From the NCBI RefSeq assembly GCF_001956985.1, contig NZ_CP019082.1:2356001-2420000 (forward strand): a stretch of DNA of 64,000 nucleotides. Reading direction: 5' to 3'. The notes beneath the pieces were generated by a model. It made no database searches and was not told the origin of the DNA. It saw only the letters and a program-made list of their open reading frames with translations. The position numbers and the translations under genes were made by a program. Below, one piece after another: positions 57,007 through 59,547 of the stretch (the first letter of the stretch is position 1; each line of letters begins with the position of its first letter). The DNA comes from Paludisphaera borealis. GTDB taxonomy: Bacteria > Planctomycetota > Planctomycetia > Isosphaerales > Isosphaeraceae.

Positions 57007-58034
57007 CGCGACGCGACTCCTGAACGATCCCGTCTCAAGATCCCGTACCTCGTTCCAAACCAAACGACCCGGCGATTCATCGGCGCGCTCCCAGCGAAGC
57101 CCAATCATAGACCTTGCCGTGAATTCGATAAATTAAAAACCATCAACATTCTCGACTTATTCAACCCGAACGGCCGAGACACGACGACGATCGACCATTG
57201 CCTCACGCACGACGGCAGAACGTCATCCACTTCGAACGAGAGAACGCATCGACTGCTTCGGACGAGCGTCGAATTCAGACCTAACCGATTTTATGGCAAA
57301 GTTTTACAGATGAAGGACCGCGATCGTCCCAAGCGAAGTCGAAGGGACGAGCCGGCGATCCGTTCGCATAAATGGTCGTTGCTGACTATCGCAACGATCC
57401 GAAGATCATACTACGAATTAATGTCTACGGACAACCGATGAGGCGTCGACGCCACTGCGCGTCGCGCGCCCCCGACTCCGCTCCCGGTCCGACGCGGCAA
57501 GGGCTGTTCGCCGAAGCATGGCTTCATGGGCGACTGCACCTTGCAAGACCATCCAGCCAGGCGGTGGCGATATCGTCCTGACGGGTTTCCATGTCGATCG
57601 GATTCCGGTGGTCCGTGCGCGATCAGCTCGTTGAACTGGGTGTTTCTGTCGTAAATTCAAAGGAGGGAGGCTCGCGCCCCAGCGCAGCCCTTCGCTCTTT
57701 CCCAATCCGGATGCGGCCCCCACGCGGGGACAGCCGTACAAATTCGCGCGAACGAACCCAATTTCCGAGGCGCGTCTCCCCCTGGAAGCCGACGCCGACC
57801 GAGGCGGATTCCAGGCTGGGGCTGGTCGCGTGCGAAAGCCTGGGAGGCTCGCGGAATCGACGATACTCCGCCAAACGAAGCCAACTCCCCGCGACTGCAA
57901 GACCATGGGTAATCAGACTTTACATTCGTTTCCCAGCAACCTGATACGCCGAACGAAGCCAACGCCCCGTCGGGCCTCGCCCTTGCGGAATCCTCCGTTT
58001 CTGAGCGATCGAACTGTCATGAGCCTTTGGCTCA
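57007..58034. other. Gene-poor, repeat-bearing region upstream of the IS110 element
   Basis: Left part (57100-57430) is unusually AT-rich for the window and probably carries the glycosyltransferase promoter; it has a small hairpin TCGTTGC/GCAACGA at 57376-57397. The right part returns to high GC and holds three copies of the CGAACGAAGCCAA-type motif. Frames of up to 160 codons (for example 57418-57906 minus) lack ribosome sites and are Arg/Ser/Pro-rich, so they are not called. Confidence 0.5.
57749..57962 (+). repeat. Dispersed C(G/A)AACGAA(G/C)CCAA motif
   Basis: Copies at 57749-57761 (CGAACGAACCCAA), 57872-57884 (CAAACGAAGCCAA) and 57950-57962 (CGAACGAAGCCAA). An exact copy of the last one is at 59535-59547, on the other side of the IS110 transposase. 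The motif could be part of a dispersed repeat that the element uses as target. Confidence 0.55.
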
Positions 58035-58061
58035 CCCCGACCCATGAAAATGGGTTCGGGG
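58035..58061 (+). repeat. GAAA-tetraloop hairpin, best-paired copy
   Basis: CCCCGA plus CCCAT pair with ATGGG and TTCGGGG around a GAAA loop, with one bulged T. Same CCATGAAAATGG core as the copies at 55246-55516. Confidence 0.65.
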
Positions 58062-58288
58062 TTGGTTATGCTGTGGGGGTCCGGCCCTGGGCGAGAGGCC
58101 GTCATTGGCTTTGGTGTCGCGAACCCGCGATCGAACTTGGTCCCGGCCTCGGCTCGACTTCATGTCGAACCCCGTCCTGTCGCCCCCCGGAAGCGGGGAA
58201 GCACGTAGAAGAAACTGCTTTACGCCCCGAGGTCGTCCCACCGGCTCGGACTGCTTCGTTTCCGACCACTCGAGTTGGAGGGGACGTC
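58035..58288 (+). ncRNA. Candidate bridge RNA region of the IS110 element
   Basis: IS110-group elements are known to encode a guide (bridge) RNA in the non-coding DNA before the recombinase gene. Here 254 bp without a gene contain a row of hairpins: 58035-58061 (GAAA loop), TCGCG-AACC-CGCGA (58117-58130), TCGAC-TTCAT-GTCGA (58154-58168) and CCCC/GGGG near 58184-58198. Position and structure fit; target- and donor-binding loops were not matched to flanks. Confidence 0.35.
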
Positions 58289-59437
58289 ATGGACATCGTT
58301 CACGATCGCTGCGCCGGGCTCGACGTCCACAAGAAGACCGTCGTCGCCTGCGTCCGCCACATCAACCCCGACGGCTCGGTCGCCTCGGTGGTCCACACCT
58401 TCGGCACGATGACCGCGGACTTGCTGGCCCTGGCCGACTGGCTCGACGCCCACGGCGTCCGCGAGGTCGCCATGGAGAGTACGGGCGTCTACTGGAAGCC
58501 GATCTTCCACATCCTGGAAGGGCGATTCGACGTGATGCTGGTCAACGCCGGGCGGCTCAAGCAGGTCCCCGGCCGCAAGACCGACGTCAAGGACGCCGAG
58601 TGGATCGCCCAGTTGCTCCAGCACGGCCTGCTGTCGCCCAGCTTCATCCCCAAGCCGGAGATCCGCGAGCTTCGCGACCTGACCCGGCAGCGCACCGAGT
58701 TGGTCCGCGACCGCGCCGCGGTGGCCAATCGCCTCCAGAAGACGCTGGAGGACGCCAACGTCAAGCTGGGGTCGGTGGCCAGCGACGTCCTGGGGGCCTC
58801 GGGGCGCGCCATGATCCGGGCGATCATCGACGGCCAGGACGACCCGGAGAAGCTGGCCGATCTGGCCAAGCAGCGGCTCCGGGGCAAGATCCCCGAGCTG
58901 AGGCGGGCGCTGTTGGGCCGGGTCACCGACCACCACCGCTTCGTGCTCCGGCTGCTGACGGATCAGATCGACGCGTTGGAACGCCTGATCGAGCGGCTGG
59001 ACGAGCGGATCGACGAGGCCATGAGGCCGTTCGACGAGGCGGCGGGCCGGCTCCAGGGGATCCCCGGAGTGGGGGATCGGGCGGCGGAGGTGATCGTGGG
59101 GGAGATCGGGCCGGACGTGGAGTCGTTCCCGACCGCGGGCCACCTCTGCTCCTGGGCGGGGCTGTGCCCGGGCAACGACCAAAGCGCCGGCAAACGCCGC
59201 AGCGGCAAGACGACCAAGGGGAGTCCGTGGCTGCGTTCGCTCCTGGTGCAGTCGGCGTGGTCGGCCAGCCACGCCAAGAACACCGCCTTCAGCATCTGCT
59301 ACCGTCGATGGGTCCCACGACTCGGGAAAAAGAAGGCTCTGATCGCCGTGGCGCACAAGATCCTGGTGGTGATCTGGCACCTGCTCAAGAACGGGGCCGA
59401 CTACCGCGAACGCCAACTACCAGCCCCTGCAGCCTGA
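58289..59437 (+). CDS. IS110-family transposase (bridge-RNA-guided type recombinase)
   Basis: A 382-residue protein with the RuvC-like DEDD domain first: Asp12 in AGLDVHKKTVVACV, Glu63 in AMESTGVYWKP, Asp99 and Asp102 in GRKTDVKDAEWIA. The transposase_20 domain (GIPGVGDRAAEVIVGEIG, then CSWAGLCPGNDQSAGKRRSGK with the candidate catalytic Ser) follows. GGAGGGG precedes ATG 58289. The end after HLLKNGADYRERQ is shorter than in relatives known to me, which usually run about 30-40 residues further, so the C-terminus may be clipped or frameshifted. Otherwise the gene looks functional. Confidence 0.93.
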   Translation: MDIVHDRCAGLDVHKKTVVACVRHINPDGSVASVVHTFGTMTADLLALADWLDAHGVREVAMESTGVYWKPIFHILEGRFDVMLVNAGRLKQVPGRKTDVKDAEWIAQLLQHGLLSPSFIPKPEIRELRDLTRQRTELVRDRAAVANRLQKTLEDANVKLGSVASDVLGASGRAMIRAIIDGQDDPEKLADLAKQRLRGKIPELRRALLGRVTDHHRFVLRLLTDQIDALERLIERLDERIDEAMRPFDEAAGRLQGIPGVGDRAAEVIVGEIGPDVESFPTAGHLCSWAGLCPGNDQSAGKRRSGKTTKGSPWLRSLLVQSAWSASHAKNTAFSICYRRWVPRLGKKKALIAVAHKILVVIWHLLKNGADYRERQLPAPAA

Positions 59438-59534
59438 CACATGGCCCGGAAGATTTTCAGAAGAAGCCAATAACCGGGGGCGTTCAAGGGACGGCCGGCC
59501 AAGGATCGAAGGCGATGGAAGGGTGGTTCCTGGT

Positions 59535-59547
59535 CGAACGAAGCCAA
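59535..59547 (+). repeat. Right-hand copy of CGAACGAAGCCAA
   Basis: Exact 13-bp match to 57950-57962 in direct orientation, 98 bp after the transposase stop. Confidence 0.55.

What the first reader, a model, noticed from the sequence alone, without database searches (positions are those of the whole stretch)
58035..58288. Possible bridge RNA upstream of an IS110 transposase
A gene-free 254-bp stretch with at least four hairpins lies directly before a complete-looking DEDD/Ser recombinase. IS110-group elements keep the guide RNA there. A planctomycete bridge RNA with a GNRA-loop first hairpin would widen the known diversity.
Basis: partly seen in the sequence, partly recalled or inferred. Interest (0 to 1): 0.6.

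Follow-up and report, generated by a model that had tools for sequence, protein, structure and literature searches.

The report
Planctomycete IS110 element with reversed-order guide RNA
The stretch in front of this jumping gene encodes the guide RNA that tells it where to insert, and in this branch of the family the RNA's guide segments run in the opposite order to the best-studied relatives, which breaks a published rule linking that order to the RNA's position.

Summary
Window 58012-59465 is a complete IS110-family element, present in 17 copies (98.8-100% identical) in this genome. The gene-free stretch is its left end and encodes a bridge RNA. A covariance model shared with about 80 relatives from many phyla was tested on 24 pairs, 20 with compensatory changes (0/500 shuffles). 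Ends, core (AA) and target (CGAAGG-AA-[G/C]CCAAT) follow from the 17 copies and from an exact empty site (242 bp, 98%, no gap). Three of the four expected guide-DNA pairings are met in the window and are significant across relatives; the fourth (right donor) is not shown. [quoted passage not shown] This is the published IS1111 order, but with the RNA upstream of the gene as in IS110. The clade therefore separates guide order from RNA location. RNA expression and recombination were not shown. I file it as a new variant of a known kind.

The parts
58012..59465 (+). complete IS110-family insertion sequence, including the core dinucleotide AA at each end
   Evidence: 17 copies, 98.8-100% identical, alignment ends here; empty site joins CGAAGG-AA-SCCAAT
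58005..58013 (+). left target half (GCGATCG) plus core AA; target-derived flank
   Evidence: identical to 58127-58135 in the RNA
58012..58013 (.). core dinucleotide AA, left copy
   Evidence: GAA is shared by both junctions and occurs once in empty sites; AG in 60 of 67 relatives
58021..58033 (+). terminal hairpin GAGCC-UUU-GGCUC
58035..58061 (+). 5' stem-loop with GAAA tetraloop
   Evidence: z = -4.3, 0/200; C58035-G58061 in two copies is A-U in the other 15
58090..58247 (+). bridge RNA core (target loop and donor loop) by covariance model R1
   Evidence: 84.1 bits, E 4e-21 (the window is one of the 26 training sequences); 20 of 24 tested pairs with compensatory changes across the clade
58097..58142 (+). 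target-binding loop, stem GGCC/GGUC, inner hairpin 58112-58127
58104..58111 (+). 5' target guide AUUGGCUU; pairs with top strand AAGCCAAT (core + right target) at 59464-59471
   Evidence: exact 8-nt complement; clade-wide z = 11.2
58127..58137 (+). 3' target guide GCGAUCGAACU; identical to the left junction 58005-58015 (left target, core, 2-nt handshake)
   Evidence: exact 11-nt match; clade-wide 7.76 vs null 4.93 sd 0.11; left target alone z = 11.0
58145..58234 (+). donor-binding loop, outer stem GGCCUCG/CGAGGUC, inner hairpin 58182-58202; extra local hairpin 58154-58168
58207..58213 (+). 3' donor guide AGAAGAA; identical to the element's right end plus core, 59459-59465
   Evidence: exact; own 7/7 match in 70% of relatives vs 3.4% permuted
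58289..59437 (+). IS110 DEDD/Ser recombinase ORF, 382 aa and stop
59454..59463 (+). right end: conserved TTTTC motif and left-donor half TTTTCAGAAG
59464..59471 (+). right core AA plus right target GCCAAT (flank)

Best explanation
58012-59465 is a recently active IS110-family element whose left end encodes a bridge RNA (about 58034-58245). The RNA has a 5' stem-loop, a target-binding loop and a donor-binding loop. Inferred mechanism, by analogy with IS621: recombinase and RNA form a complex; the target loop reads the 14-bp site CGAAGG-AA-SCCAAT, the donor loop reads the joined ends of the circular element, and strands are exchanged at the core AA. Shown here: the ends, the core region, the target, the RNA structure and three guide-DNA matches. 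In this clade the guides are mirror-imaged relative to IS621. [quoted passage not shown] the 3' target guide copies the left target, core and about two handshake bases; the 3' donor guide copies the right end of the element. Equivalently, the recombination sites are inverted relative to the RNA-recombinase cassette, and the usual core AG reads CT on the other strand, as in IS621. Not shown: RNA expression, RNA ends, recombination, and the right-donor pairing.
For: 17 near-identical copies with identical ends and a 14-bp conserved target. Gap-free empty site, 242 bp at 98%. 24 predicted targets in this genome vs 0 for the reversed pattern. Structure: 93.6% of cells paired vs 77.5% in shuffles, 108 double-change cells vs 34, 0/500. 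The RNA lies upstream of the ORF in nearly all relatives, including relatives at 31-37% protein identity. Guide tests with permutation controls: 3' target guide vs left target z = 11.0; 5' target guide vs right target z = 11.2; right end vs 3' donor guide 70% vs 3.4%; handshake z = 5.5; the IS621-order alternatives give z = 1.4 and -1.0. IS621 read directly as orientation control: its 5' guide matches the flank beside the left end. Natural co-change: the window copy has TC in its left target where 15 copies have AG, and TC at 58131-58132 of its RNA where all other copies have AG.
Against: The donor 5' guide shows only weak covariation with the right donor (z about 2). One copy (L011) has the TC target but an AG guide, so guide and target are not perfectly linked within the genome. 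No sigma-70-like promoter was found near the left end. No expression data. Relatives' ends are inferred, and the right-end calls partly use the donor guide.
Confidence: 0.92

Rival explanations
1. A bridge RNA with the standard IS621/ISEc21 guide order; the reversed order is a misreading of the ends.
For: Published IS110 members with an upstream RNA have the bottom-strand match first (PMC11187229; IS621 verified).
Against: Tests of the standard order across relatives are null (z = 1.4 and -1.0) while the reversed order scores z = 6 to 11. All three pairings found are reversed consistently. Ends are fixed by empty sites.
Confidence: 0.04
2. The structured left end is an mRNA leader or attenuator controlling the recombinase, and the matches to the flanks reflect end recognition by the protein.
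For: It sits directly before the ORF; a terminal hairpin is present.
Against: Guide segments change with the target flanks across relatives, which a leader would not need.
Confidence: 0.02
3. The conserved AUGAAAAU in the 5' hairpin is mainly a DNA element (-35 box or recombinase site), so the RNA starts downstream of it, from an internal promoter. This concerns the RNA's 5' end only and is compatible with the best explanation.
For: ATGAAA is strongly conserved; TATAAT-like hexamers peak at 15 and 17 nt spacing in relatives; it is the reverse complement of the right-end motif ATTTTCA.
Against: Compensatory change in the window hairpin stem; the promoter signal is weak (mean 2.4 of 6) and the window shows no promoter hit.
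Confidence: 0.3

Closest known systems
IS621 bridge RNA (IS110 family; PMC11208160, PMC11208158; structure 8wt6)
   Same: RNA in the left end; 5' stem-loop, target loop, donor loop; 14-bp target; dinucleotide core; handshake bases after the 3' target guide; DEDD + Ser catalytic residues
   Different: Guide order reversed in both loops; core AG/AA (CT/TT on the other strand); the RNA model does not hit IS621; recombinase 382 vs 326 aa, phmmer E 3.4e-10 only
ISEc21 seekRNA (IS110 family, PMC11187229)
   Same: Non-coding region upstream of the recombinase gene; target matched on both strands
   Different: Published order is bottom-strand match first; here the top-strand match is first. The ISEc21 sequence itself was not examined here
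IS1111 seekRNAs (ISEc11, ISPa11, ISKpn4; PMC11187229)
   Same: Same order: top-strand match 5' of bottom-strand match
   Different: IS1111 RNA lies downstream of the gene, with 11-13 bp subterminal inverted repeats; here it lies upstream and no such repeats were seen

Membership tests
IS110 family (broad) | DEDD RuvC domain plus Tnp (PF02371) domain with catalytic Ser | tested here: met
IS110 family (broad) | non-coding bridge RNA with target and donor loops in the long end | tested here: met
   sequence and covariation only, expression not tested
IS110 family (broad) | loops complementary to target and donor, meeting at a shared core | tested here: met
   three of four pairings; right-donor pairing inconclusive
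IS110 family (broad) | circular intermediate and RNA-dependent recombination | not testable with these tools
   needs PCR or an in vitro assay
IS110 group as published (ISEc21/IS621 type) | long non-coding region upstream of the recombinase gene | tested here: met
   277 bp on the left, 28 bp on the right
IS110 group as published (ISEc21/IS621 type) | bottom-strand (left target) guide 5' of top-strand guide | tested here: not met
   reversed in the window and in the clade; standard order confirmed in IS621
IS1111 group | top-strand guide 5' of bottom-strand guide | tested here: met
IS1111 group | non-coding region downstream of the gene | tested here: not met
   only 28 bp after the stop codon
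IS1111 group | 11-13 bp subterminal inverted repeats with 7/3 bp extensions | tested here: not met
   inspection of both ends: only ATGAAAAT / ATTTTCA at unequal distances

The most novel reading that the evidence does not exclude
A third arrangement of RNA-guided bridge recombinases: RNA in the left end as in IS110, but with the recombination sites inverted relative to the RNA-recombinase cassette as in IS1111. It would mean guide order and RNA position evolve independently, and that the large ~400-aa clade, possibly including IS110 itself, departs from the published rule.
Probability: 0.75. Interest if true: 0.65.

Novelty: new variant of a known kind. Interest (0 to 1): 0.56.

Why it matters
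Published work ties guide order to family and RNA position. A wide clade that breaks this tie shows they are separate characters, constrains how the RNA moved between ends during evolution, and warns that guides in this clade would be mis-assigned, and tools mis-programmed, under IS621 rules. It also supplies a ready system: 17 copies, a defined 14-bp target, empty sites, and a natural two-base change in guide and target.

Tried and rejected
Rfam gave nothing at gathering thresholds. Single-sequence folding gave a misleading target-loop fold. A first core guess (GA, further left) was dropped after the relatives' AG core and the G/C variation right after AA. One flank search against same-genus genomes (L024) hit many coding repeats and gave no clean empty site; within-genome repeats solved it. 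Donor 5' guide vs right donor: no clean signal. Internal promoter: suggestive only.

Full report
WHAT IS THERE. The gene-free stretch is the left end of a complete insertion sequence. A search of the window's own genome found 17 copies, 98.8-100% identical over 1,461 aligned bases. The 382-aa ORF at 58289-59434 carries PF01548 and PF02371, is called 'IS110 family RNA-guided transposase' by NCBIfam NF033542 at 299 bits against a cut-off of 140, and aligns D12, E63, D99, D102 and S299 with the catalytic residues of IS621. The same five residues are invariant in the first relatives aligned.

ENDS, CORE AND TARGET. The 17 copies share CGAAGG-AA-C[G/T]GTCATGAG on the left (CGATCG in two copies, a single-base variant in two others) and TTTTCAGAAG-AA-[G/C]CCAAT on the right. 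Positions -6 to +7 of the joined flank are conserved and the bases outside are not. Copy L017 has an exact empty counterpart in the same genome (L201): its joined flanks align over 242 bp at 98% without a gap across the junction. Both junctions share GAA, which the empty site holds once. I place the core at AA because the G/C variation starts right after it and because the relatives' core, AG in 60 of 67, aligns there. The motif CGAAGGAASCCAAT occurs 24 times in this genome and 0 times when the pattern is read backwards; it also occurs in same-genus genomes in which no copy of the element was found. It resembles one arm of a genus-wide family of REP-like palindromes.

THE RNA. Eighty loci with relatives at about 48-59% protein identity were fetched from many phyla, besides nearer ones up to 63-64%. 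Their left ends are homologous to the window's. An alignment of 26 gives a target loop and a donor loop, each with an inner hairpin. In a count of 24 pairs, 93.6% of cells are paired (77.5% in shuffles), 20 pairs have compensatory changes, 108 cells are double changes (34 in shuffles), all at 0/500; sliding the partners destroys the signal. The structure was derived from this same alignment, which favours it over slid versions. The covariance model finds the RNA directly upstream of the ORF in 85 loci, in the window at 84 bits (a training sequence), and in relatives at only 31-37% identity. It does not find IS621 or four other distant IS110-type loci (L166, L167, L220, L223).

GUIDES. In the window: 58104-58111 AUUGGCUU is the exact complement of AAGCCAAT (core plus right target); 58127-58137 GCGAUCGAACU is identical to the left junction 58005-58015; 58207-58213 AGAAGAA is identical to the right end plus core. 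Across relatives, against permuted pairings: 3' target guide and left junction 7.76 vs 4.93 (sd 0.11); left target alone, by an anchor that does not use the guide, z = 11.0; 5' target guide complementary to right target z = 11.2 over 67 elements; own right end matched 7/7 by the 3' donor guide in 70% vs 3.4%; handshake bases z = 5.5. The pairings expected from the IS621 order are null (z = 1.4, -1.0). Some loci are close relatives, so the z values should be read as strong rather than exact. The fourth pairing, donor 5' guide with right donor, is not shown (z about 2).

ORDER REVERSED. I read an annotated IS621 copy as an orientation control. Its left flank is ATCAGGC-CT and its right flank CT-ACGCAG; its 5' target guide ATCGGGCCT copies the left flank. 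The Nature Communications seekRNA paper states that IS110-type ISEc21 has the bottom-strand match first, and IS1111 members, whose RNA lies downstream of the gene, have the top-strand match first (PMC11187229). The present clade has its RNA upstream but the top-strand match first. More distant relatives (446-460 aa) appear to share this by eye: L216 sits in an IS3-type gene with ATCCTAAAA-AA-GGCGACCG, and its 3' guide holds TTAAAAAAC. In a tree the loci with this RNA form one supported group (95/99) apart from IS621 and the other distant rows, though those rows are on long branches. The protein lengths, 382-460 aa, fit the subgroup said to include IS110 itself (395-455 aa, PMC11187229), but I did not examine IS110.

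WITHIN-GENOME EVIDENCE. The window copy has GATCG in its left target where 15 copies have GAAGG or GGAGG, and the same two bases (TC for AG) in its guide at 58131-58132, where all other copies have AG. A second copy (L011) has the GATCG target and the window copy's first 78 bases, but the common guide, so it was probably inserted in trans or later converted. The 5' stem shows one full compensatory change (C-G to A-U) between these two copies and the rest.

LIMITS. No RNA or recombination data exist. Figures of the bridge RNA papers could not be viewed, so I cannot exclude that one of the six 'diverse' elements drawn there already shows the reversed order; my literature search covered only open PMC papers.

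Noticed in passing
L103:1342-1700: An element without ORF, reduced to left end, bridge RNA and right end, whose own 3' donor guide matches its own right end, with a second, complete element inserted exactly at that right end: a non-autonomous derivative.
   Followed up: partly
L124, L131 (Thermoanaerobacter wiegelii) left flank: Left flank GTTTCAATTCCTTATAG looks like a CRISPR repeat, suggesting that this relative targets CRISPR repeats; the 5' guide fits the expected right half (the repeat was recalled, not checked).
   Followed up: partly
57749-57761, 57872-57884, 57950-57962, 59535-59547: Copies of CGAACGAA[G/C]CCAA (one mismatch allowed) cluster around the element; two of the same-genus genomes hold tens of REP-like palindromes ATTGGSTTC...GAASCCAA with none in the backwards control.
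   Followed up: partly
58044-58051 and 59453-59459: The conserved left-end motif ATGAAAAT is the reverse complement of the conserved right-end motif ATTTTCA, at unequal distances from the core; meaning unknown.
   Followed up: partly
59402-59437: The recombinase lacks the roughly 30-residue C-terminal tail seen in its relatives (382 vs 405-415 aa), yet the element has spread to 17 copies.
   Followed up: no
L016 (G000:C1:5205490-5209550): Two copies 138 bp apart with the same left flank, consistent with a duplicated target.
   Followed up: no
L029, L045 (G047): Two relatives carry recombinase frames with in-frame TAG codons, probably decaying copies.
   Followed up: no
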